Source of the DNA: Armillaria gallica
Lineage: Eukaryota; Basidiomycota; Agaricomycetes; Agaricales; Physalacriaceae
Length of the DNA: 64,000 nucleotides
Assembly: GCA_037576215.1 (NCBI GenBank)
Contig: JBANDB010000015.1
Coordinates: 682,001 to 746,000 of the forward strand
Direction: 5' to 3'
Part shown: positions 4,348-64,000 of the stretch, piece by piece
Layout: each line of letters begins with the position of its first letter
Numbering within the stretch: position 1 is the stretch's first letter
The notes under the pieces: model-generated
The model's input: only the letters and a program-made list of their open reading frames with translations
What the model was told of the DNA's origin: nothing
Database searches by the model: none
Made by a program: the position numbers and the translations under genes

Positions 4348-5762
4348 ATGGTTGCCTCCTTTCGCCAAGTGCCAGAAGACTGTCGAAAGGTGAGCTTATA
4401 ACACTCTTGGTACCACACTGTACTGACGAAGAATATTCCCAATGTTAGGCCGCACACCGCATCGACGCCTCTCGGGTCTGGGCGGTTCTCATTGGAATCA
4501 ATGAGTATCTCCCCTCCTCCAAATGCTCTCCGTTACAGGGTTGCGTGAACGACGTTGAGATGATGGTGAAATTTTTGGTCAATGACCTAGGGGTGTCACA
4601 GGGTCACATCCAGTGCCTTCTCAGTACCAGCTCCGAAGAACTTCGCATGACTCGCATCGCTGTAACCGGTCCCACCCGTAAAAACATCATCGACATACTT
4701 TTATCTCTATCTACCAGACGCGATATACTCCCTGGCGACAATATTGTCATCTATTTCGCCGGACACGGGTCATGGTATGACCTTTCAGACCTTTACGGGG
4801 CTGGCAATATTTCAGCTGAAGGATCCATCGAAGCCTTATGCCCCATAGACCGTAATACTCCCTCTAGAGCCGATACCAGCATCCCCGACAACCACACTGT
4901 ACCATGTCAATTAATTCGTCACAATTTTGGAACTCGCAGAGCTCTGAAATTTTGCTCCAATCTATGGCGATTTTTGACAGTGAGATTTTTCAGTCTTGTG
5001 ACCTATGACTGACGAATTGATTAAAATAGTACAGTACCCCCTCTGGAACCAAAACCCGCATCCCCGACATTAGTGACCGAGAGATCAACACCATTCTTAC
5101 AGAAATATCTCGCACAAAGGGACATAATATCACTGTTATCCTCGACTGCTGTTACTCCGCAGGGAGCACTAGAGGTCTGCCGAAAGTAGCACGCCATGCT
5201 GCTCCACTGCCGCCTACCTCAGTTAAAGATATGCTCGAGGTCGCAGATAAAAGGCTCGGACATTTACCGCAGTATCGCTCTGTATTTGACGGAGATTGGA
5301 AACCCAATATGTCTTCCCACGTCGTTCTGGCAGCGTGTAAAGACTATGAGCCTGCGAAAGAGGAGCGGGGACCTGGCAGTCGCTGGAACGGGGTTTTTAC
5401 GCGGGCGCTCATTGAGGCGCTTAAATCAGATAGCCTGAAGGAAGAGTCGACATATGCTGACGTCATTGGTGCTTTGAAGATGAATACCGTGCAGAAGCCG
5501 GTGGTCGCAGGGAATGCGGGTGCACGACTTTGGTTTCAGCCTCAGGTATGACAGCATCGCGCAGGATCCAGTGATACGCATTCTTAATCCGATATTCATT
5601 CAGATGAGCAAGAAAATTTCGTTGTGGTCTACCATGCATGTGCGGCTGCTTCGAATACATAGTGTTCAAGGCGTTATTGTTGGGCTAATTGTCTTGGCGG
5701 CGTGGTTGGCCATAGGTGGCCATACAAGAATCGAGATCAGGATCAACATCCGCCATGGCTGA
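4348..5762 (+). CDS. Tail-anchored caspase-like protease, copy 1
   Basis: Type I metacaspase-like peptidase (family C14) followed by a C-terminal membrane helix. Proposed exons: 4348-4389, 4449-4898, 5030-5545, 5604-5762, all phase 0, about 388 aa. The domain opens with RVWAVLIGINEY. The catalytic His lies in IYFAGHGS near 4755-4775 and the catalytic Cys in LDCCYSAG near 5140-5165. The last exon reads MSKKISLW and then a hydrophobic helix (VIVGLIVLAAWLAIGG), giving a cytosol-facing protease anchored by its tail. The third intron is supported because the anchor frame is kept in all five copies; without splicing the protein stops at GTATGA. The second intron coincides with an inserted element. 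An in-frame ATG at 4321 would add nine residues; 4348 is preferred because copy 2 starts there. Expected role is regulated proteolysis or cell death; this is inferred from the family. Confidence 0.78.
4896..5035. mobile_element. 140-bp MITE-like insertion acting as an intron
   Basis: Absent at the same place in caspase copy 2. The ends are imperfect inverted repeats of 26 bp: ACTGTACCATGTCAATTAAT... on the left, and the reverse complement of the right end begins ACTGTACTATTTTAATCAAT; 22 of 26 positions match. GT at 4899-4900 and AG at 5028-5029, with CTGAC about 16 nt before the AG, make a usable 131-nt intron. Its removal restores the frame and leaves only Tyr-Ser as a footprint. I could not define a clean target-site duplication. 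If it is not spliced, copy 1 is truncated about 30 codons into the insertion. Confidence 0.7.
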
Positions 5763-8584: not shown

Positions 8585-9967
8585 ATGTCTGCCTCTTCTC
8601 GCCAAGTTCCAGAAGACCGTCGAAAGGTGAGCTTATAACACTCTAGGTACCGCACTGTACTGACGAAGAATATTCCCAATGTTAGGCCGCACACCGCATC
8701 GACGCCTCTCGGGTCTGGGCGGTTCTCATTGGAATCAATGAGTATCTCCCCTCCTCCAAATGCTCTCCGTTACAGGGTTGCGTGAACGACGTTGAGAGGA
8801 TGGCGAAATTTTTGGTCAATGACCTAGGGGTGCCACAAGGTCACATTCAGTGCCTTCTCAGTACTAGCTCCGAAGAACTTCGCATGGCTCGCATCACTGT
8901 AACCAGACCCACCCGTAAAAACATCATCGACACACTTTTATCTCTATCTACCAGATGCGATATACTCCCCGGCGACAATATCATAATCTACTTCGCCGGA
9001 CACGGGTCATGGTATGACCTTTCAGACCTTTACGGGGCTGGCAATATTTCAGCTGAAGGATCCATCGAAGCCATATGCCCCATAGACCGTAATACTCTCT
9101 CTAGAACCAATACCCGCATCCCCAACAATCGTACTCCCCCCTCTGGAACCAAAACCCACATCCCCGACATTAGCGACCGAGAGATCAGAACCATTCTCAC
9201 AGAAATATCTCGCACAAAGGGACATAATATCACCTATATCCTCGACTGCTGTTACTCTGCAGGAAGCACTAGAGGTCTGCGGGAAGTAGCACGTGGTGCT
9301 ACTTCACTGCCGCCTACTTCAATCGAAGATATGCTCCAGGCCGCGCATACAAGGCTCAGAGATTTACCGAAGTATCATTCTGTATTCGATGGAGCCTGGA
9401 CACCCAATATGTCTTCCCATGTCGTTCTGGCGGCGTGTCGAGATTTTGAACCTGCAAAAGAGGAGCAGGGAACTGGCAGTCTGACTCGCTGCAACGGGAT
9501 TTTTACGCGCGCGCTCATTAAGGCGCTTAAATCAGATAGCCTGAAGGAAGGGTCCACATATGCTGACCTCATTTGTGGCTTGAAGACGAATACCGCGCAG
9601 ACGCCGGTGGTCGCAGGGAATGCCAGCGCACGGCTTTGGTATCAGCCTGACATACCGGCCGTTCCTTATCGGGACCTTGCGCCGGTAGCAACACCAACAC
9701 CAACACTAACAATAACTCAGCCTGAGGTATGGCAGTATCGTTCAGGATCCAGTGGCACGCATTCTTACTCCGATATTCATTCAGATAAGCAAGAAATTTT
9801 CATTGTGGTCTGCCATGCATGTGTGGCAGCTTCGTGGTGTTGGTGTTGTTATTGTTGGGATAATTGTCTTGGCTGCGTGGTTGGTCATAGGTGGCTATAC
9901 GAGATTCCGAGTCCTGGATATACAGGCTCGGTATTTTTGGGTCTCGATGGCGGTGCATTTTGGTTAA
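8585..9967 (+). CDS. Tail-anchored caspase-like protease, copy 2
   Basis: Closest paralogue of copy 1. Proposed exons 8585-8626, 8686-9726, 9785-9967, about 421 aa. It starts MSASSRQVPEDRRK, then AAHRIDASRVWAVLIGINEY. The catalytic His is in IYFAGHGS (about 8985-9005) and the catalytic Cys in LDCCYSAG (about 9241-9265). The caspase domain is followed by a Pro/Thr-rich linker (DLAPVATPTPTLTITQPE) that copies 1, 4 and 5 lack and copy 3 shares. The last exon starts ISKKFSLWSAMHV, then a membrane helix (VVIVGIIVLAAWLVIGG) and a short basic/aromatic tail. Reading through the last intron gives a longer frame to 10173 rich in Cys and His; it is rejected because the anchor frame is conserved across paralogues. 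Confidence 0.82.
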
Positions 9968-10836
9968 TTAGGTGTATGTCGGCCCACCGGTCCGTTCGGG
10001 TTTACTGTACGCTGTTCGGCTGTCACCGTCCTGAGCATCATTGCTCTGTTCATCTTTCCCGTTCATATCTGTTTGCAGGCTTGATTATCTCTGCAGAACC
10101 TCGTACCCATGCATTGCTGTATGAAGTTCAGAATCCTGCTTCAACTCTGTATCACCGTGGCCGAAAGTATTAAGGACAGTGGTAACAACTTGCAACCGTC
10201 GTGCGTCATGACCACCGCCACCATAGAGCTCAAACCCGGCTTACTTCTTCGAGCTTTTGCTTAGCATCGCAACGGCCTTCTAGCAGATATGTGATCGCGG
10301 AAGACACCGTCTTTCGTATTCCGGTACGCTGGCCATTTGTTTTGATGGCGAGTTCTCATTGTCCTATTTTGTACAGTCAAACGAAACCATTTGGCTACTT
10401 CTGATTCATTCACCTTGTGGGTTTGAACCATTAATTATTCGTTATCCTCACATCCTCAACATGGCCAGATTAGAACTCGGGCTCATTCCTCAGAACAGCG
10501 ATATCTACTGATGCCGAGGAAAGATGACCGTTGAAGGATTATACAGTATGCCTTTGGTTTCTCTAGCTTATCTATCACAATGTTGGAGGCGACCCACCCC
10601 CTTCACCATTGCAATGTCTCGGTGTTGGGCCATACCCATGCCCCTTTAATGCACCAGAAATGAATGGCTCGCCTTGTGTACTTCATTGGATGTGTCTAGC
10701 GAGCGGTATCCACGAGTGTTGGTTCCCGTAGGAAGATAAAAGGATGCCTATGAGGTGAAGCGTGAGTTTCCCTGCTTTTCAACATATCTATCCAGTACGG
10801 CCCTCCCGCTCTGCGAACGAGGAGCCATAATATCTC
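9968..10836. other. 3' flank of caspase copy 2, no gene seen
   Basis: Short frames only. No module shared with the other caspase 3' flanks was recognised, so the break point of the duplication probably lies just after the stop at 9967. Confidence 0.4.
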
Positions 10837-18097: not shown

Positions 18098-19384
18098 ATG
18101 CTTGAAGACCGTCGCAAGGTGAGCCGCGAGCTTATAACTCTCACTGTACTGATGAAGAAAATTCCCAATATTAGGCTGCACATCGCGTTGATGCAAATCG
18201 GTTCTGGGCGATTCTCATTGGAATCAATGCCTATCCCTCCTGTCCATTACGCGGTTGCATGAGCGACGTTAAGAAAATGGAGGAATTCTTGACCAAGGAC
18301 CTAGGGGTGCCGGAATGTCACATTCAGTGCCTTCTTAGTCCCATCCCCATCCCACCTGACCCTTCCGATTCGACAAGACTCTGCATCGAACCCGAAGAAC
18401 GACGTATCGTCGGAGCGGTGACCAGTCCCATCCGTGAAAACATCGTCAACACACTTCTCAGTCTATCTACCAACCCCCAGATACTTCCTGATGACAATAT
18501 TATCATCTACTTCTCCGGACACGGGTCAAGCTATGACCTCGAAGCTTCAGGCCTTTTCGAGGCAGACAATATTTTAGCTGTAGGATCCATCGAAGCGCTA
18601 TGCCCCGTGGACCGTACCGCCTCTGCTACCGATCTCTGCATCCCTGACATTAGTGACCGAGAGCTCAATAATATTCTCGCAGAAATCTCCCGCGCGAAAG
18701 GAAATCATATCACCTTGATTCTCGACTGCTGTCACTCCTCAGGTGTTAGCAGAGATCCAAACGAATCATTAAATGTAGCTCGCCGTGCTCCTTCACTGCC
18801 GGTTACTTCGATTAAAGCCATGTTCAACGCCGCACATACAAGGCTCGAAAATTTACCGAAGTACCGTTCTGTATTCGAAGCAAATTGGGAACCCGATATG
18901 ACTTCCCACGTCGTTCTAGCAGCATGTACAGAGACTCAGCGTGCGGAAGAGGCAGAGGGAGCTGACAATCGCTACAACGGGTTTTTTACTCAGGCGCTTA
19001 TCGACGCGCTCAAATCAGATGGCTTGAAAGAAAACTCGACATATCTTGACCTCATTACTATTAGTGAGTCAATGATGCCTCCGAACGCCAAGCAGATGCC
19101 GATGGTCGCAGGGAATATTTCTGCACGGCTTTGGTATCAGTCTGGCATAACGGCCGTCCCTGATCAGGACCTTGCGCCGGAAACAACACCAACACCTCCG
19201 AAGCCTGAGGTATGACGTTATCGTTCAGGATCTAGTGGCACGCATTCTTACTCTCATATTGATTCAGATGAGCAAAGTTTCATCGTGGCCTGATATGAAT
19301 GCGTGGTTGCTTAGCGTTGTTGGTGTTAGTGTTGGTATTGGTATTGGCATTGGTATTGGGTTGATTGCCTGGCTGTGTGGTTAG
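18098..19384 (+). CDS. Tail-anchored caspase-like protease, copy 3
   Basis: Proposed exons 18098-18118, 18175-19209, 19268-19384, about 390 aa. The short start is MLEDRRK, then AAHRVDANRFWAILIGINAY; the loop after it is four residues shorter than in copies 1 and 2. The catalytic His is in IYFSGHGS (about 18508-18530) and the catalytic Cys in LDCCHSSG (about 18721-18744). A linker (DLAPETTPTPPKPE) like that of copy 2 precedes the anchor exon. The anchor is unusual: MSKVSSWPDMNAWLLSVVG, then a Gly-Val/Gly-Ile repeat ending LIAWLCG. The family role is proteolysis, but most such fungal proteins are uncharacterised. Compared with copies 1 and 2 the loop after CPVDR is short. Confidence 0.82.
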
Positions 19385-27049: not shown

Positions 27050-28287
27050 ATGCCTGACTCCGAGTCCCAACCAATGTCTGAAGACCATCGAAAGGTGAGC
27101 CGCGAGCTTATAACTCTCTGGATACCGTACTGTACTGATGAAGAAAATTCCCAATATTAGGCTGCACATCGCGTTGATGCCTCTCGCGTCTGGGCAGTTC
27201 TCATCGGAATCAATGCGTATCCCTCCTCCTCCAACTGTTCTCCATTACGCGGTTGCGTGAATGACGTTGAGAAGATGGAGGAATTCTTGACAAAGGACCT
27301 AGGGGTACCGGAAGGTCACATCCAGTGCCTTCTTAGTCCCATCCCCCCTGACCCTTCCGATACTTCGAGTCTCTCCGCAGAACGAAGTATCATTGGAGCT
27401 GTGACCACTCCCACCCGTAAAAACATTATCGACACACTTCTCGGTCTATCTGCCAACCTCCAGATACAGCATGATGATAATATTATTATCTACTTCGCCG
27501 GACACGGGTCGAGCTATGACCTCGAAGCTTCAGGCCTTTTCGAGGCAGACGATATTTTAGCTGTAGGATCCATCGAAGCGCTATGCCCCGTGGACAGGCG
27601 TACCGCCTCTGCTACCGATCTCTGCATCCCTGACATTAGTGACCGAGAGCTCAATACTATTCTCGCAGAAATCTCTTGCGAGAAAGGAAATCATATTACC
27701 TTGATCCTCGACTGCTGTCACTCCTCAGGTGCCAGCAGAGATGCGAACGAACCATTGAATGTAGCTCGCCGTGCTCTTTCATTCCCGACTACTTCGATTA
27801 AGGACATGTTCGACGCCGCAGATACGAGGCTCAAATCTTTACCAAAGTACCGTTCTGTATCCGAAGCCAACTGGAAACCCGACATGACTTCCCATGTCGT
27901 TCTGGCAGCATGTACAGCGACTCAGTTTGCAGCAGAGCAGGGAGCTGACAACCGCCGGAACGGGATTTTTACGCAGGCGCTCATCGACGCGCTCAGATCA
28001 GATGACTTGAAAGAAGAGTCGACATATGTTGACCTCATTCGTGCTTCGAAGATGCCTCCGGCAGCCACGCAGACGCCGGTGATTGCAGGGAATGCAAGTG
28101 CACGGCTTTGGTATCAGCCTAAGGTATGACAGTATAGTTCAGGATCCTACGCATTTTCACCCTGATATTCTTTTAGATAAACAAGAAAGTATCACCGTGG
28201 TATTATGACGAGGCTGCCATGCTTGCTTTGTTGCTTGGTGGTGTCGGTGTTGTGTCAATTGCCTGCCAGTGGCTGCGTCGTCGCTAG
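27050..28287 (+). CDS. Tail-anchored caspase-like protease, copy 4
   Basis: Cleanest copy. Exons 27050-27094 (MPDSESQPMSEDHRK), 27161-28123, 28177-28287, all phase 0, about 372 aa. The domain starts RVWAVLIGINAYPSSSNC; the catalytic His is in IYFAGHGS (about 27,490-27,511) and the catalytic Cys in LDCCHSSG (about 27,707-27,730). The domain ends ASARLWYQPK. The anchor exon reads INKKVSPWYYDEAAMLALLL, continues GGVGVVSIACQW and ends in three Arg, a classic tail-anchor shape. No linker is present between domain and anchor, unlike copies 2 and 3. If the last intron is retained the protein stops two codons later and becomes soluble, so intron retention could switch localisation. Family function (Arg/Lys-specific or caspase-like cleavage) is inferred. 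Confidence 0.87.
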
Positions 28288-35564: not shown

Positions 35565-36733
35565 GTGAGCTTATAATTCTCCAGATATCGTACTGTACTA
35601 ATGAAGACAATTTCCAATATTAGGCCGCGCACCGCGTCAATGCCTCTCGGGTCTGGGCAGTTCTCATTGGAATAAATGCGTATCCCTCCTCCTCCAACTG
35701 TTCTACATTACGCGGTTGCGTGAATGACGTTGAGAAGATGGAGGAATTCTCGACAAAGGGGTGCCGAAAGGGCACATCGAGTGCCTACTCAGTCCCATCC
35801 CTTCCGATACTTTGAGTCTCTCCGCAGAACGACGTATCGTTGGAGCTGTGACCACTCCCATCCGTAAAAACATTATCGACACTCTTCTCGGTCTATCTAC
35901 CAACCCCCAGATACAGCACGGTGACAATATTATCATCTACTTTTCCGGACACGGGTCAAGCTATGAGCTTTCGGACTTTTACGAGGCAGACGACATGTCA
36001 GCTGAAGGATCCATCGAAGCGCTATGCCCCGTGGACCGTACCGCCTCTGCTACCGATCTCTGCATCCCCGACATTAGTGACCGAGAGATCAACACTATTC
36101 TCGCAGAAATCTCTAGTACGAAGGGAAATCATATCACCCTGATCCTCGACTGTTCTTACTCCTCAGGTGCCAGCAGAGATCCGAGCAAATCATCGAATGT
36201 AGTTCGCCATGCTACTTCATTGCCGGCTACTTCAATTAAAGACATGCTCGGGGCCGCAGATACAAGGCTCGGAAAATTATCGAAGTACCATTCTGTATTC
36301 GAGCGAAATTGGAAACCCGATATGATTTCCCACGTCGTTCTGGCAGCATGTGAAGAGACTCAGTATGCGGAAGAGGCGCCGGAGGGAGGTGACAATCGCT
36401 GGAACGGGGTTTTTACACAGGCGCTCATCAAGGCGCTCAAATCAGATGACTTGAAAGAAGAGGCGACATATATTGACCTCATTCGTGCTTCGAAGATACC
36501 CCTGAAGGCCAAGCAGACACCGATGACCGCGGGGAATCTAAGTGCACGGCTTTGGTATCAGCCTGAGGTATGACAGCATTGTTCAGGATCCTGTGGTACG
36601 CATGTCCACCCTGATATTCTTTTAGATGAAAAAGAAAGTATCACCGTGGTATCATGACGAGGCTGCCATGCTTGCTTTGTTGCTTAGTGGTGTTGGTGCT
36701 GTGTCAGTTGCCTGCCAGTTGCTGCGTCGTTAG
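35514..36733 (+). pseudogene. Caspase-like copy 5, frameshifted and Cys-to-Ser
   Basis: Exon 1 equivalent ends at 35564 (MAYSSASSHPVLEDRRK from ATG 35514, or continuous with the upstream gene). Exon 2 starts 35624 (RVWAVLIGINAYPSSSNC), but after EEFSTK seven bases present in copies 3 and 4 (GACCTAG) are missing at about 35,757, shifting the frame. From 35,761 the domain continues in the new frame to 36567 (PKGHIECLLSPI ... LSARLWYQPE). Anchor exon 36626-36733 is intact (MKKKVSPWYHDEAAMLALLL, ending LLRR). His is kept (IYFSGHGS), but the catalytic position reads LDCSYSSG instead of LDCC(H/Y)S. Two independent inactivating changes make a working protease unlikely. Confidence 0.8.
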
Positions 36734-46701: not shown

Positions 46702-49700
46702 ATGAGCATCTCTTCCGACTTTCGCAGTGCACCAACTGATCTCTTACGACGATGGACAGTTGCCTTACTCTTTTGGTCGTGGCTTTCCGCCCTACTTTAC
46801 GGGAGCAGTATCGGGGCGCTTGCTAGGTCTATCATCCATGACGAGAATGGCGACACCTTGTACCGTCGTATGGCCTCTTTCACCGACCAAGTCTCTTTTG
46901 ACAACTACAGTTTGTCGCTACGTGGCCAAAGGGTCTTCTTGCAGTCAGTGTCCTCTATTCGGTTCGAGTGCTTAATACTAATGATTATGCAGTTCCGGGG
47001 AATTCCACACATTTCGGTTACCTGTCCCGTCTTTATGGCCCGACATCCTGCAAAAGGTCAAGGCATCAGGTCTGAATGCTGTCAGTGTCTACGTTCATAT
47101 GGGTCTCCTCAACCCATCGCGCGGAGTCGTGGACTTTGACGGCTTTCGAGCTCTGAAGTCGCTATACGAGGCCGCTTTGGATGCGGGCATTTGGATAGTT
47201 CTACGTCCTGGTACGTTTTAGTCCTCTTCTGCCGACCTAGGGTGCTCAACTCAGATCACTAGGCCCAGTCAGTTGCGCTGATATATTTTGTTGTTGGGTG
47301 CTCACCCGTTTCAGTACATCAATGCGGAGACATCAGCAGGCGGTATAGCGCATTGGGCTACGTCGGAAGTTGCTGGAACGCTGCGAACAAGCGCCCCCGA
47401 TTGGAAGGAAGCATGGATGTATTATATTCTCGGGATCATCGAAGAGACGGCGCCGTATCAAATCACCGAAGGAGGGCCGGTTATTGGTGAGTGCATCGCT
47501 GTTTTGACGCGCCTTATTCTGATCCCATGTTTCGTCAGCGATACAGATTGGTCTGCTTCGTCTTGTAGCGCGAAGACAGCTGATGCTAAATTGCTGCCTC
47601 AGATAACGAGTTCTCTCAGAGCGTCGGTGGAGAGTACTTTGCCGAACTTGAAGAAGTCTATCGCAATTCAGGCATTGTGTTACCCTTCACCTACAATGAT
47701 CCAGGGGAAGGTCGCAACTTTATCAACGGAACTGTGAGTTTGTTTGATGAGTTTTTCATCCCTTTATGCTAACATAACCGCTTCTAATCAGGGCGCCGTC
47801 GATCTTTACGGGTCAGTCATCTTCTTCAGTTCTCTTTCCTACTTCTTACCGTTGCCCTGTCAGACTGGATGCTTATCCTCAACGCTACGACTGCTCTCAT
47901 CCCTTGGACTGGCATGGGGTTCCCTTAGACTATCATCAATATCACGAAGAAGTCAATCCATCGCAGCCCTGGTATATCCCCGGTGCGCGCGGCTTCTTTG
48001 TCTCCGGATTCTCAACTAATCTGAACTGGGCAGAGTTCCAGGGAGGTTCGTTCGATGCTTGGGGTCCAACTTCGCCGGGTAATGTGCCAAGCTAGTGTTC
48101 TACTATCGGCTTCTCACTACCTATCCTAGGCTATGCTCCTTGTGCCATCCTGACGGGCCCCGATTTCATGTCTGTTTTCTATCTTCAGTTATGGGCCAGC
48201 AATGCGAAGCTGCTCAGTTACTACATGCTTTACGGGTGCGTCACTGAAATAGTTGTCTCGCTGTACTGTTTTTGATGACATACTCTAGTGGTACATCTTG
48301 GGGGGCAATACCGTTCCAGTAAGCTGTCCATGCTATACTCCTACTATATCTTGCTGACTTCTTAAATTAGCGGGGTAATTTTTGATGGCCTCTTAGATCA
48401 AACTACTAGTACTAACTTTGGGAAGGTTTACACCTCATACGACTACGGAGCTTCCGTAAGTCTGGTTTTGTCCAACTTGGCTCACTAGAACTCAAACTGG
48501 TTCAGATTGATGAAGCGCGACAATTGACAACAAAATACGACGAGCTGAAGAGACAAGGCTTGTTCGTCCGAAGCTCGCCGGAATTCTACAAGACAGATTG
48601 GGTTGCTGACAGCTCCACGGGTCTTTCAATACTGTCGTCTGATGCGGTCTTTGCGACTTACCTCCTCAATCCTGATACACAAGCTGGGTTCTACATTGTT
48701 AGACATAACGATTCCACATCGACGTGAGGATTTCATTCGAATAACAGGTTTTTCGTGCGCTCGCTCATCAATTCTGGATAGTGATGTCACCGACTTCAAG
48801 ATCAACGTTACTACAGCAGAGGGTGACCTTCAGATCCCGATTATCGCCTCAGCAGCTACTCTCGGCGGACGACAGTCTAAAGTCATCGTGACCAATTACG
48901 CGTTTGGCTCATCACGACTGTTACATTCCACAGCGTCAATCTTTTTCGCTGGTATCATCGATGGCAGAGATGTTCTCTTCATCTATGGCGACACCTCCCA
49001 AGAGCATGAGATCGCGTTATCGCTCACAGGGCGCTCCTTCCGAAAGGATACGATACTTCATCATTCCGAGCCACACTCACGCCGAGTTCCGTTACTACAA
49101 TCTTCTCCTTCCCTACTGGGACTCGAGGCCTAGTCACGGTCTACGACTCCGACTCGCAGTTGGTGTTATTTGCCGACTCTGACACCATCACCACCTTCTG
49201 GGCACCTGTCATTCCTGGAGACGCCAGTGATTCACTGCGCAACTTTTGGGGTCTGGGGACGAATCAGTCTGTCCTCGTGGGTGGACCATATCTCGTGCGC
49301 TCGGCTAGCATAACAGGAACGGAGCTTGCGTTGAAAGGCGACCTCAACGCCAGTACGCCATTGACAATCATAGCTCCTGCTGTGATCAGCTCTGTGACAT
49401 GGAATGGCGCTGCGTTGTCGGTCAATGCGTCCTCATCCTTGACGGTTATCGGAGGTCTAGTAGGAGAACTTACGTTGTCGTCGACATCCGTTGACATCGC
49501 AGTGACTCCGAGATTGGAGGGATGGAAATTCCGAGACAGCTTGCCGGAGATTCGACCAATGTTTGACGATGGTTCGTTTGTCGTTGCGAACCATACCACG
49601 ACCAACATCCCTTGGAAACCGTATTATTCCGATGGGACAATTCTGTACGGATGCGATTACGGGTTGTATGTGTCATTTCTTGTGATATCAGTTCATTCAA

Positions 49701-50986
49701 TGAAATACCTCGTAACTTGTAGCTGCGAAAATATTGTGCTTTGGAGAGGACATTTCAATGGAACGGGAACCGAGCAGAGCCTCAATCTTTCTATAAACGG
49801 TGGTGAAGGTGAAAATACATTCTCATCAATTTCTCCGATGCCCGGACTGATACCGGCCCGGTCCTAGCGTTTGCCGCAAGCGTTTGGCTCAATAGCGTCT
49901 TCCTGAATACGTCTTACGGAAAGTAAGATATGCAGTGAATCTGTACATGCTGTGGTACTGATGCTATATATTCAATTGCCAGTTCTACCAACAACAGAAA
50001 CATTCTCGAGGAGACAGATGACGTATTTCTCTTCCCAGAAGGCGCTGTTTCACCGGGTGATAATGTCATTACAGTAGTTCAGGTATGTGTATGTGCTGGC
50101 GCACCAATTTCTCTTAATGCATCCCTTGGCAGGACAACATGGGCCTGAACGAAACTGCGTGTATGTGCCTGTGTTCTCAGGAGTTGTCAACGTCTAACGT
50201 CTAACTTTGCATAGCAAATCCCGATTTTTCCAAAGGTCCTCGTGGCATACGTGGATTCCAGCTCAACTCCGGCAAGTTCACACAGTGGCGGGTTCAAGGG
50301 AAAATCGGTGGATATACAAAGTGGGTGCCACCGCCAATGTGAAATACATTTATCGCCCAAAGCTCATGAATGTTCTATCAGCTTTCCCGACAAGGCCCGT
50401 GGCGTGTTCAATGAGGGAGGTCTTTACGGCGAGCGTAAAGGCTGGCACTTGCCTGGCTTCGATACGTCGTCATGGGAGTCGAGGGATCTAAATCATGGTT
50501 TACCAAAATCTGCAGCAGGCATTGGCTTCTTTGTGACGACATTCGATCTCCACATTCCAGAAGGTTTTGACGTGCCTATGTCTTTCAACTTCAATGAACC
50601 GCTCGGTCAACCCTACCGGGCGTACCTGTTTGTGAATGGCTGGATGATGGGCAAGCGAGTCGGAAACTTAGGGTAGGTCAGACAGCATGTCATACGCTGG
50701 CAGTAGAACTGACAAAACACGTCCAGACCGCAAGCTAAGTTCCCGGTTCATCAAGGTATTCTGGATTACAGTGGGACCAAGTAAGCCTACTCAATTTCTC
50801 AAATCGGACGGCCGAATTAAATCTGACAACTGCACCCGTAGCACCGTCGCTGTTGCCCTCTGGTCGATGGAGACTAATGCAACTATTACCCCCGACCTGC
50901 AGCTTAGTGTGGACGCCGTGTATGAAGGTGGGCTAGAAGGCGTAGTTACGAATAATCCTCGCTGGTCACCAGCAGGTCGTGTATGA
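46702..50986 (+). CDS. GH35 beta-galactosidase, secreted, one frameshift
   Basis: Hydrolyses terminal beta-galactosides of plant cell-wall polymers. A hydrophobic signal-anchor segment lies at residues 18-42. I traced exons from 46702-46943, 46993-47210, 47263-47267, 47315-47486, 47539-47550, 47603-47733, 47792-47811, 47864-47982, 48034-48078, 48130-48235, 48289-48318, 48371-48374, 48426-48455, 48506-48723 and 48782 onward; every junction is GT-AG and in phase. Motifs: FLHSGEFHTFRLP, LRPGPYINAETSAGGIAHW, acid/base Glu in IQIDNEFS (codon 47608-47610), nucleophile Glu in PEFQGG (codon split 47982/48034), YGGTSWG, VYTSYDYG. The C-terminal jelly-roll domains end GILDYSGT, TVAVALWSMET, VVTNNPRWSPAGRV and a stop at 50986. 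One base is missing near 49,030 (LSLTG | ALLPKGYDTSS): either a real inactivating indel or a sequencing error. About 1,000 aa, normal for LacA-type enzymes. Confidence 0.9.
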
Positions 50987-60971: not shown

Positions 60972-61994
60972 CTAGCTACTCTTCGTCTTGGATTTGATCC
61001 CATGGGCGAGGCCGAGTGATGAGATCAAGTCCTTCCCTAACCGAAGGATGATGAAAGTGGGGACGACAAGCCATAACCTTCGATAGATGGTTAATCAGCC
61101 GAAGAATAGAATAGATAGAAAAAAAACCGGGGTGCGTACCCGTTGGGAATGATCCAGTATTGAATCAGGTCCTGGGTATTGTTGTGCCCAATATTGCACC
61201 ATCCGCAGTAGTACTCCTGCAACCAGTACAACAAGGTCTTGGCCAACGTCAAGTTGGCAGACGTGAACGCGACTAAATTGGCAGGAGGCCACTGTACGAC
61301 GTACGCCAGGTACAAGTACGCAATATTCAAGAAATTTTCCACAATGTTAAGCAGGGCTAAAATAAACATCCACATTAATTTTTTCTCGGATCAGCGGTTT
61401 GATGAAAAAGATGATTGATGATGGGGATGGGGGGATGAGAGATGAAATTTCGCACATTGGGCGTTCGGGAAGCCATCTTTTTCTGCAAATGCCGGGACGC
61501 CGTATATCTAGAAAAAGAAAGGTGTCAAGGGATGTGGGTTTGAGATGGGAATGTTCGGATTTTACGTAGTCGATCTAGACGGGTGGGGTGATGAGTAAGG
61601 GACGCGCTATGGAAGGACGAGAATGGACTTGCTCCCGCCGTACATTTTGATAAATGGAATATGGCTGCCATATCCAGTGAAGATCGCCTCCCTAAACAAG
61701 GGTAGACCGTTAACTATTTCGCGAGCTAATACTTACGAGTGTCCGCCGGATCCGCATACCTCCATAGAGCGGGGCCTATTGTGGAAAAAAACGGGACTGC
61801 GTCAATACCAATTCCCTGCGAGGGCCTAGCCAGCGTTCACCTCAAGAAAAGATATCCGGCGTCCCAGAATATGATCTGTTATGTAGTAGAATCCATTGTA
61901 AAGACGTAATCGAGGAGAGATCGCAATCGCCAAGCCGCACCGGGATAGTGATGAGGAACCACGCAGTAATCCACCAGTAGGTCTGTGCAGTCAT
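60972..61994 (-). CDS. Conserved fungal four-helix membrane protein
   Basis: Eight exons on the minus strand: 61994-61941, 61875-61841, 61775-61760, 61691-61644, 61574-61566, 61507-61456, 61356-61140, 61077-60972, giving 178 aa with no stop or frame break. Key segments: TAQTYWWITAWFLITIPIIF (TM1), WDAGYLFLRPRSMEGG, DLHWIWQPYSIYQNIDYIYG, AFAEKDGFPNAQ, SLLNIVENFLNIAYLYLAYV (TM2), LTLAKTLLYWLQEYYCG (TM3), GHN, YWIIPNGLWLVVPTFIIL (TM4), then a basic tail ending KSKTKSS. This matches a widespread fungal family without a known role. The four-helix layout and the ending YW-IPNGLW-V-P recall EXPERA/emopamil-binding sterol isomerases, but I do not claim that function. An apparent ATG at 61,375 lies inside an intron. 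The start at 61994 follows a probable 5'-UTR intron (about 62,053-62,003). Confidence 0.88.
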
Positions 61995-63380: not shown

Positions 63381-64000
63381 ATGCGAATCCATAATTTGCT
63401 CGTCGTACTGGCCTCGGCGATGGCCTTCGTTGGGGCAGCCCCTGCGGTACGCCGACCTACCGTCGCACTTGGTTGCAAGTTTTTCTAACTGTCGACTTTA
63501 GGGAGAACTGAGTGAAGTCGAGTTACGGGAGGCGGAGGTGCGTGTCTGGGCTATCCTAATCCTATTCTGTGCTTACCCCGTACCAGCCTGCGAACGGCGG
63601 AGGAGGTCAATCAGGTCAATCTTGGCGTCGTGATGCTGAGGTGAGTGCTGCGGGTTTTCATTCAATTGACTTCACGCGTTGACTTGTGTTTTTTTTTCCA
63701 TAGGAAATCCACGTTGCGCGTGAGGTGTGACCCTGTCCTGCGTATTCAAAATGTTCGTTTATTCATGCTATCTATCAGCCTGCCAACCAAGCTAGTGCGG
63801 CCTGGCGTCGCGGGGTGCGTAATCCCGTACTGGGTGGAGCATTCGCCATAACTTATACATTTCATTCCAATACAGCCTGCCAACCAAGCTAGCGCGGCCT
63901 GGCGTCGTGATGTGTGTAATCCCATGCCGGTCGGGTATTCACTGAAACTCACTTCAATTCTAGCCTGCCAACCAAGCCAGTGCTGCATGGCGGCGTGAGG
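63381..64000 (+). CDS. Secreted repeat-peptide precursor (Kex2-processed), partial at 3' end
   Basis: Seven exons seen: 63381-63446, 63502-63537, 63587-63640, 63704-63724, 63779-63814, 63876-63911, 63964-63999, all phase 0. The gene runs off the window (base 64000 would begin the next donor). Exon 1 is a 22-residue signal peptide (LLVVLASAMAFVGAAPA). Exon 2 is an acidic spacer (GELSEVELREAE). Exon 3 is a divergent unit (PANGGGGQSGQSWRRDAE). Exon 4 is EIHVARE. Exons 5-7 each encode PANQASAAWRR followed by G, D or E. Arg-Arg is a Kex2 cleavage site. Cleavage would leave X-Pro-Ala-Asn..., whose N-terminal X-Pro is a typical target of Ste13/DPP-IV aminopeptidases, as in yeast alpha-factor. The likely products are several identical 8-10-residue peptides (core ANQASAAW). 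No ATG or frame alternative explains the sequence better. Confidence 0.85.
63779..63999 (+). repeat. Repeated exon-intron units, about 90 bp each
   Basis: Three units of 97, 88 and at least 36 bp. Each is a 36-nt exon starting CCTGCCAACCAAGC and ending TGGCG(T/G)CG plus one codon, followed by an intron of 52-61 nt. Exons are nearly identical; introns share only the first about 12 nt (GTG-GTAATCCC) and the end. This indicates recent tandem duplication of exon plus intron, with stronger constraint on the exon. Confidence 0.9.

What the first reader, a model, noticed from the sequence alone, without database searches (positions are those of the whole stretch)
63381..64000. New repeat-peptide precursor: signal peptide plus PANQASAAW units split by Arg-Arg
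The sequence shows a signal peptide, an acidic spacer and at least three copies of the same nine-residue unit, each ended by Arg-Arg and a single D/E/G. This is the layout of Kex2-processed repeat proteins, which in fungi include alpha-factor pheromones, repellent-type surface peptides and precursors of cyclic RiPPs (dikaritins such as ustiloxin). Basidiomycete mating pheromones are normally CaaX lipopeptides, so an alpha-factor-like precursor here would have another role. The core sequence is unfamiliar to me. That several identical secreted peptides are made is an inference.
Basis: partly seen in the sequence, partly recalled or inferred. Interest (0 to 1): 0.88.

Follow-up and report, generated by a model that had tools for sequence, protein, structure and literature searches.

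The report
Honey-fungus gene: one peptide per exon
A gene in a fungus that is likely a honey fungus (Armillaria) carries 14 short peptide units, each on its own predicted tiny exon, and its product is predicted to be secreted and cut by processing proteases into six or seven kinds of small peptide that likely serve as chemical signals; the gene was only partly visible in the window, and our protein searches found a single relative, an entry that is probably misread in part.

Summary
Past the window edge the gene runs about 1 kb to a stop codon: 17 predicted exons, 16 phase-0 GT-AG introns of 46-65 bp, 240 residues. It holds 14 Trp-ended units, all P-[AMIY]-N...W: six PANQASAAW and eight others (seven kinds in all). 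In silico, 12 of 14 units come free cleanly; two follow a single Arg. Differences between repeat copies are synonymous in 10 of 10 changes (six ANQASAAW exons, peptide and RR codons) and 9 of 9 codons (two MNGGATGQSW exons), so the peptides look selected. The only relative found is an Armillaria borealis entry that starts past the signal peptide and leaves the pattern inside its sixth unit. Kex2-like and DPAP-like genes are present; no UstYa hit lies on this contig. This is a Ste13-type Kex2-processed repeat protein (KEP), a known basidiomycete kind. Unusual is one peptide per mini-exon, with the intron inside the X|P dipeptide. Transcription, splicing, processing and function are untested.

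The parts
63381..63446 (+). exon 1: start codon and predicted signal peptide MRIHNLLVVLASAMAFVGAAPA
   Evidence: hydropathy
63502..63537 (+). exon 2: acidic pro-region GELSEVELREAE
63587..63640 (+). exon 3: unit PANGGGGQSGQSW + RR + DAE (preceded by a single Arg, not RR)
63704..63724 (+). exon 4: EIHVARE linker, part of the one spacer out of Ste13 register (single Arg)
   Evidence: the same residues in A. borealis P0001
63779..63814 (+). exon 5: unit PANQASAAW-RR-G
63876..63911 (+). exon 6: unit PANQASAAW-RR-D
63964..63999 (+). exon 7: unit PANQASAAW-RR-E
63381..64000 (+). part of the gene inside the window; it goes on beyond base 64,000 in locus L002 (L002 position = window position minus 62,000): exons 8, 9, 10 (PANQASAAW) at L002:2051-2086, 2138-2173, 2225-2266; exon 11 (PMNGGSAGAAW) 2313-2366; exon 12 (PMNGGATGQSW) 2426-2473; exons 13, 14 (PMNQPAAGW) 2529-2570, 2624-2665; exon 15 (PMNGGATGQSW) 2726-2785; exon 16 (PINGNGPSW) 2837-2884; exon 17 (PYNQPVAGW, stop TAA) 2950-2979

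Best explanation
This gene encodes a 240-residue precursor, as read through predicted splice sites, that is predicted to enter the secretory pathway and to be cut after Arg-Arg by a Kex2-type protease and trimmed by a Ste13-type dipeptidyl aminopeptidase into short linear Trp-ended peptides (five or six copies of ANQASAAW and five or six other kinds) that likely act as secreted signals. Shown by the sequence: 14 units P-[AMIY]-N...W; 13 of 13 Arg-Arg sites followed by X-Ala or X-Pro; 12 of 13 spacers of even length (2, 4, 6 or 8) that end in X-Pro just before the [AMIY]-N core. Two of the 14 units (the first of all and the first ANQASAAW) follow a single Arg and may or may not be released. Inferred: Kex2 cuts after RR, a Kex1-type carboxypeptidase takes off the basic residues, and the DPAP removes X-A/X-P pairs in steps, stopping at the [AMIY]-N core. 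Each unit sits on its own predicted phase-0 mini-exon, and the intron before a unit falls between X and P of the last dipeptide. Exon plus intron is therefore a cassette: duplicating, losing or skipping one keeps the reading frame and rebuilds an X-P site at the new junction. The role (signalling outside mating, to the fungus itself or to others) is inferred from the alpha-factor-like design and from published views on Ste13-type KEPs.
For: Gene model with 16 of 16 GT-AG phase-0 introns. The A. borealis protein P0001 follows the same exon order over 112 residues (gene residues 14-125, exons 1-10) with 5 differences, 3 of them at X residues. Purifying selection on the peptides: in the six ANQASAAW exons all of at least 10 changes in codons 1-11 are synonymous (about 1e-6 under a simple null), and amino-acid changes occur only at codon 12, the X residue; exons 12 and 15 differ in 9 of their first 16 codons, all synonymous. 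The introns after exons 5, 6 and 7 are far more diverged (0.52-0.63 alike; shuffled mean 0.48, highest 0.58) than those exons (0.83-0.89), apart from the recent cassette copies 7-9. Processing enzymes are in the genome: a subtilase with P-domain followed by a hydrophobic stretch (L038), a DPPIV_N plus Peptidase_S9 gene with a hydrophobic stretch in a frame upstream (L034), and Peptidase_S10 genes. Published precedent (PMC9769878): Pleurotus Ste13-type KEPs yield MSGVAADW and SGVAADW in fruiting bodies, and a C. cinerea KEP made in yeast gave QMRPPSW and QYKAPSW after XA/XP removal.
Against: No transcript or peptide was seen; the splice model rests on sequence signals and on one annotated relative. 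P0001 has five full PANQASAAW units and leaves the pattern inside the sixth (PANQAT...): from there it holds stretches that match other reading frames of exons 11 and 13/14. I take this as a gene-prediction error, but real divergence or alternative splicing in A. borealis is not excluded, so the junctions of exons 11-17 have little outside support. Two units follow a single Arg. Le Marquer et al. say basidiomycetes do not use KEPs for mating, Vogt et al. saw no apparent phenotype for knockouts of six C. cinerea KEPs, and no receptor is identified, so the signal role is a guess by analogy.
Confidence: 0.78

Rival explanations
1. Precursor of a cyclic dikaritin-type RiPP: the units would be cross-linked by UstYa-type oxidases after Kex2 cutting.
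For: Kex2 repeat layout; UstYa (PF11807) genes exist in this genome, 18 exon-level hits. In PMC7329392, 17 of 76 KEPs like the putative basidiomycete pheromones did have UstYa-type neighbours.
Against: None of the 18 UstYa hits lies on this contig C15 (counts are lower bounds); none of the 30 window and flanking ORFs given to Pfam, of 46 listed at the chosen length cut-offs, matched UstYa. Six of the seven core kinds have no Tyr. The spacers are Ste13-type, which PMC6339444 reports absent from cyclic tetrapeptide and epichloecyclin precursors.
Confidence: 0.06
2. Same processing as in the best explanation, but the peptides act on other organisms (host tree, competitors or animals) and not on the fungus itself. 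This overlaps with the best explanation and differs only in the target.
For: Vogt et al. suggest a role in the biotic environment because six C. cinerea kep knockouts had no apparent phenotype in axenic growth (PMC9769878); Le Marquer et al. leave this open too.
Against: The cores are small, free of Cys and of charged residues, unlike typical antimicrobial peptides (inference from general knowledge); the ANQASAAW core is the same in the six units here and the five full ones of P0001, which fits a fixed receptor better than an arms race (inference).
Confidence: 0.3
3. Structural or surface peptides like the repellent Rep1 of Ustilago maydis, coating hyphae.
For: Kex2-cut repeats from a secreted precursor.
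Against: The predicted cores are 8-12 residues and mostly hydrophilic; PMC6339444 states that Rep1 lacks the Ste13 signature.
Confidence: 0.05
4. A decayed gene or a chance satellite, not expressed.
For: No transcript data; the related entry P0001 is irregular in its second half; P0001 is the only protein found.
Against: All changes between unit copies in the peptide and RR codons are synonymous in two separate comparisons; 16 of 16 introns keep GT-AG and phase in the model; units are kept in a second species.
Confidence: 0.05
5. A sex pheromone of the fungus, read by an STE3-type receptor.
For: alpha-factor-like layout; STE3-type matches at six places in the genome.
Against: Basidiomycete mating pheromones are a-type, prenylated peptides (PMC9769878; PMC6339444) and this precursor ends in NQPVAGW, without CaaX; the gene is on C15, while the STE3 matches listed are on C1, C2 and C5; no STE2 match was found, though that search had no working control.
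Confidence: 0.05

Closest known systems
Ste13-type Kex2-processed repeat proteins (KEPs) of Agaricomycetes: Pleurotus KEP 1091723/1439342, Coprinopsis KEP 490115 (PMC9769878; PMC6339444)
   Same: Signal peptide, Kex2 dibasic sites, XA/XP dipeptides, short linear cores ending in Trp (MSGVAADW, QYKAPSW; here ANQASAAW, MNQPAAGW).
   Different: Core sequences differ; here 7 core kinds in one precursor (Le Marquer et al. report at most 3 repeated-motif types in a KEP, but count only motifs with three or more copies) and each unit on its own predicted mini-exon, which I did not find described. No sequence link to these KEPs could be shown.
Ascomycete alpha-factor pheromone precursors (MFalpha1 type)
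   Same: Layout: leader, pro-region, dibasic sites, EA-type Ste13 spacers, last unit at the C terminus.
   Different: No Pfam match to MF_alpha, no STE2 found (no working control), several different peptides, an intron before each unit.
Annotated protein EV421DRAFT_1903761 of Armillaria borealis (P0001)
   Same: 66% identical over 95% of the query; the same leader end, pro-region and five full ANQASAAW units in the same order.
   Different: Starts at the counterpart of residue 14 (no full signal peptide) and leaves the pattern inside its sixth unit; its last two units are PISGRGPSW and PLNQPAAGW.
Schistosome micro-exon genes (PMC4015677, passages)
   Same: Mostly secreted products, tiny symmetric exons that can be left out without a frame change.
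   Different: No relation; there alternative splicing is reported, here it is only possible; Kex2 processing is not mentioned in the passages seen.
Dikaritin RiPP precursors (ustiloxin type)
   Same: Kex2-cut repeats behind a signal peptide.
   Different: No UstYa hit on this contig, Ste13 spacers, six of seven core kinds without Tyr.

Membership tests
KEP (Kex2-processed repeat protein) | N-terminal secretion signal | tested here: inconclusive
   Strong hydrophobic stretch LLVVLASAMAFV near the start; no SignalP available
KEP (Kex2-processed repeat protein) | At least three similar repeats separated by KR/RR/KK | tested here: met
   14 units, 13 RR
KEP (Kex2-processed repeat protein) | Cleavage by Kex2 | not testable with these tools
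   A Kex2-like gene with S8 and P domains is present
Ste13-type KEP | XA/XP dipeptides right after the dibasic site | tested here: met
   13 of 13 RR sites; 12 of 13 spacers wholly in dipeptide register, DAEEIHVAREP is the exception
Ste13-type KEP | Removal of the dipeptides by a DPAP | not testable with these tools
   A DPAP-like gene with an anchor-like hydrophobic stretch upstream is present
Ascomycete alpha-factor pheromone | MF_alpha sequence family (Pfam) | tested here: not met
   Only Apidaecin at E 0.073, under its cut-off
Ascomycete alpha-factor pheromone | STE2-type receptor in the genome | tested here: inconclusive
   No match, but the control rang nowhere
Basidiomycete mating pheromone | C-terminal CaaX | tested here: not met
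   C terminus is NQPVAGW
Dikaritin RiPP | UstYa/DUF3328 genes next to the precursor | tested here: not met
   18 UstYa hits in the genome, none on C15 (counts are lower bounds)
Micro-exon gene | Most of the coding sequence in tiny symmetric exons | tested here: met
   15 internal exons of 21-60 nt, all multiples of 3, phase 0, by the predicted model
Micro-exon gene | Isoforms by exon skipping | not testable with these tools
   No RNA data

The most novel reading that the evidence does not exclude
The gene is a splice-programmable peptide cocktail: each mini-exon carries one complete peptide cassette, and exon junctions rebuild the X-Pro trimming site, so choosing exons would change which of seven peptides, and how many of each, one gene secretes. 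Genes built this way would be largely invisible to proteome-based searches because predictors mishandle 36-nt exons, and may form an overlooked class of fungal peptide genes.
Probability: 0.2. Interest if true: 0.82.

Novelty: new variant of a known kind. Interest (0 to 1): 0.6.

Why it matters
Le Marquer et al. and Vogt et al. both call alpha-factor-like precursors in basidiomycetes surprising or unexpected, and their function is open. This gene gives exact peptide sequences that look selected (ANQASAAW, MNGGATGQSW) in what is likely a tree-root pathogen genus. Le Marquer et al. ran their survey on predicted protein catalogues filtered by signal peptide; the one Armillaria entry found here starts past the signal peptide and seems partly misread, so such a filter would likely pass over it, and other mini-exon precursors may be missed in the same way. 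The intron inside the last processing dipeptide suggests how a repeat gene can grow by exon cassettes without breaking its processing code.

Tried and rejected
A cyclic RiPP was considered and set aside (no UstYa hit on C15). Paralogues in the same genome: the 36-residue and 240-residue protein searches hit only this gene (1 and 8 exon-level matches; only the best candidates are scored). A WRR-type DNA pattern gave 9 matches, 6 in this gene and 3 elsewhere, against 3 for the reversed control pattern; the three others were read and rejected: a frame that looks like a GATA finger (label recalled), an isolated WRRDAE without other units, and a WRS frame. Distant relatives: searching residues 120-240 alone at E up to 10 again gave only P0001, so no link to the Pleurotus or Lentinula KEPs could be shown by sequence. 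Papers: in the listings of ten searches I saw no KEP described with one unit per exon; 'intron' and 'exon' do not occur in the main texts of PMC6339444 and PMC7329392, and in PMC9769878 'intron' occurs once, in a cloning method, and 'exon' not at all. Supplements could not be read, so Table S2 of either survey was not checked for Armillaria entries. SP7 effectors (PMC11333574, passages) have repeats, but the passages seen mention only a conserved intron before the first repeat. The Huntiella alpha-factor paper (PMC10182648, passages) mentions no intron in the alpha-factor gene in the passages seen. A genome-wide pattern search for further mini-exon precursors did not complete, so whether more exist in this genome is open. 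A wrong lead: a rust fungus was considered at first; the STE3 matches and the relatives point to Armillaria.

Full report
What is there. The window is G000:C15:682001-746000 of an 86.0 Mb genome in 28 contigs. Reading on past base 64,000 completes the gene. A splice model drawn from GT-AG signals gives 17 exons and 16 introns of 46-65 bp, all phase 0, and a coding sequence of 723 nt ending in TAA, 240 residues. Exon 1 is the predicted signal peptide, exon 2 the acidic spacer, exon 4 a short linker. Each of the other 14 exons carries one peptide unit: PANGGGGQSGQSW, six times PANQASAAW, PMNGGSAGAAW, PMNGGATGQSW, PMNQPAAGW twice, PMNGGATGQSW, PINGNGPSW and finally PYNQPVAGW followed by the stop. 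All 14 fit P-[AMIY]-N...W.

Chance. In 91.7 kb of continuous sequence a scan for open AG|CC...W[RK]R...|GT[AG] mini-exons of 30-66 nt gave 14 hits on the + strand, all in this gene (13 exons, one with two possible ends), and none on the - strand; of 20 first-order Markov shuffles, one strand each, 19 gave 0 and one gave 1.

Processing code. There are 13 Arg-Arg sites and 13 of 13 are followed by X-Ala or X-Pro. The spacers are GP, DP, EP, DP, EP, EAEP, QPEAEP, EAEP, EAEP, EAEP, EAEAEAEP and EAKAEP, 12 of 13 with even length and X-A/X-P at every step; the exception is DAEEIHVAREP. In a simple in-silico digest (cut after RR, trim C-terminal basic residues, take off N-terminal X-A/X-P pairs) 12 of the 14 units come out as [AMIY]-N...W peptides, among them five ANQASAAW; the first unit (after ELREAEP) and the first ANQASAAW (after EIHVAREP) follow a single Arg and stay joined to what precedes them. 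Vogt et al. report peptides ending at a single Arg for one KEP made in yeast, so release there is possible. That Kex2, a carboxypeptidase and a Ste13-type enzyme do this here is inferred. The genome holds a subtilase gene with a P-domain, then a hydrophobic stretch and a basic run (L038), a DPPIV_N/Peptidase_S9 gene with a hydrophobic stretch in a frame upstream (L034) and Peptidase_S10 genes. Which of these act in the Golgi was not tested.

Selection. Among the six ANQASAAW exons at least 10 changes have occurred in codons 1-11 and all are synonymous; with a per-change synonymous chance of 0.24-0.27 this is about 1e-6, treating changes as independent. Amino-acid changes occur only in codon 12, the X residue. 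Exons 12 and 15 both begin PMNGGATGQSW-RR-EAE and differ in nine of these 16 codons, all synonymous; exons 13 and 14 differ in one codon, synonymous. The introns after exons 7, 8 and 9 are 0.86-0.94 alike, recent copies of an 87-bp exon-plus-intron cassette, while those after exons 5, 6 and 7 are 0.52-0.63 alike, against 0.48 on average and 0.58 at most for shuffled introns. The peptide, not the DNA, is what has been kept.

Intron position. In 14 of 16 cases, all but the introns after exons 1 and 3, the intron lies between an acidic residue (or Gly, exon 5) and the Pro that opens the next unit. The simplest history is that the ancestral unit already held the intron and the cassette was then multiplied (inference). 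All 15 internal exons are multiples of three, so skipping any of them keeps the frame. Each of the 16 introns, if kept in the mRNA, brings an in-frame stop (11) or a frame shift (5); by my own rough estimate this second point is not far from chance for introns of this size, so it is weak evidence.

Relatives and organism. The search of the protein collection with the 240 residues (the 7,996 candidates sharing most words were scored) returned one protein, P0001 of Armillaria borealis, 66% identical over 95%; searching residues 120-240 alone (2,978 candidates) returned the same one. The collection is clustered at 90% identity and only proteins of 0.55-1.75 times the query's length are candidates. 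A caspase-domain ORF from the same window returned 358 proteins, of which 120 were listed; the rows that bear a name are from Armillaria, Desarmillaria and Guyanagaster species. So the collection holds many Armillaria proteins but, within those limits, one relative of this precursor. The genome is therefore most likely an Armillaria (Agaricales, Physalacriaceae); the species was not settled. Over residues 14-125 P0001 matches the splice model with 5 differences, 3 of them X residues. It begins at the counterpart of residue 14, has five full PANQASAAW units, and leaves the pattern inside the sixth; from there it holds stretches that match other reading frames of exon 11 (EWRLCRRSLAS) and exons 13/14 (LLDGVGK). 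I read this as a gene-prediction error, which only RNA could settle. Its last two units (PISGRGPSW, PLNQPAAGW) return to the pattern with changed cores, so the last peptides differ between the two species while ANQASAAW does not.

Comparison with what is known. Parts of three papers were read. PMC6339444 (passages; sections 15 and 24) reports Ste13 signatures in basidiomycete KEPs, calls them candidate hormones or, not excluding that, effectors, and worked from predicted protein catalogues with SignalP. PMC7329392 (passages) counts 7,878 KEPs, with UstYa-type neighbours for 103 of 1,680 basidiomycete ones; its most widespread type includes Armillaria, but the Table S2 that would tell whether this gene is in it could not be read. 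PMC9769878 (abstract, sections 8 and 10, passages) shows by mass spectrometry that Pleurotus and Lentinula KEPs yield MSGVAADW, SGVAADW and SGTGEASAADW, and notes many basidiomycete KEPs with Ste13 motifs and a C-terminal Trp. The present gene works like these and meets the repeat and Ste13 criteria tested. It differs in its cores, in having seven core kinds in one precursor, and in one unit per predicted mini-exon. Micro-exon genes of schistosomes (PMC4015677, passages) are the nearest gene architecture I found; no relation is claimed.

Against a mating role: no CaaX end, a contig without listed STE3 matches (STE3-type matches at six places on C1, C2 and C5), and the statements of two papers that basidiomycete mating pheromones are a-type. 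No STE2 match was found, but that search lacked a working control. Against a cyclic RiPP: 18 UstYa hits in the genome, none on C15, and no UstYa among the 30 window and flanking ORFs scanned of 46 listed.

Limits. No RNA or peptide data, no signal-peptide program, no other fungal genomes to search, supplements not readable, and the genome-wide search for further mini-exon arrays did not complete. Verdict: a real, apparently selected Ste13-type peptide precursor of a known kind, with an exon architecture that I did not find described.

Noticed in passing
window 4449-36570: Five separate ORFs with caspase (Peptidase_C14) domains in 32 kb (4449-5009, 8686-10170, 18175-19212, 27161-28126, 35734-36570), a tandem metacaspase-like cluster; the second has many relatives in Armillaria and kin.
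   Followed up: partly
window 47282-50673: Exons of a GH35 beta-galactosidase (Glyco_hydro_35, BetaGal domains) upstream of the peptide gene.
   Followed up: no
G000:C5:2317336-2338237: STE3-type matches that look like three receptor genes within about 21 kb, with further STE3 matches at C5:3941k, C2:4301k and C1:3482k; possibly the pheromone-receptor mating locus plus receptors outside it.
   Followed up: no
G000:C6:743760-758676, C10:2164943-2166839, C18:1365409-1366843, C7:259137-261386: UstYa (DUF3328) matches lie close together at several places, as would be expected for dikaritin-type clusters elsewhere in this genome.
   Followed up: no
G000:C11:1817157-1822191: Two DPPIV_N genes in tandem with identical scores for two of their pieces, a likely recent duplication of a dipeptidyl peptidase gene.
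   Followed up: no
window 61127-61375 (-): Small hydrophobic frame on the strand opposite to the peptide gene, about 2 kb upstream of it, with no Pfam match; possibly an exon of a membrane protein gene.
   Followed up: partly
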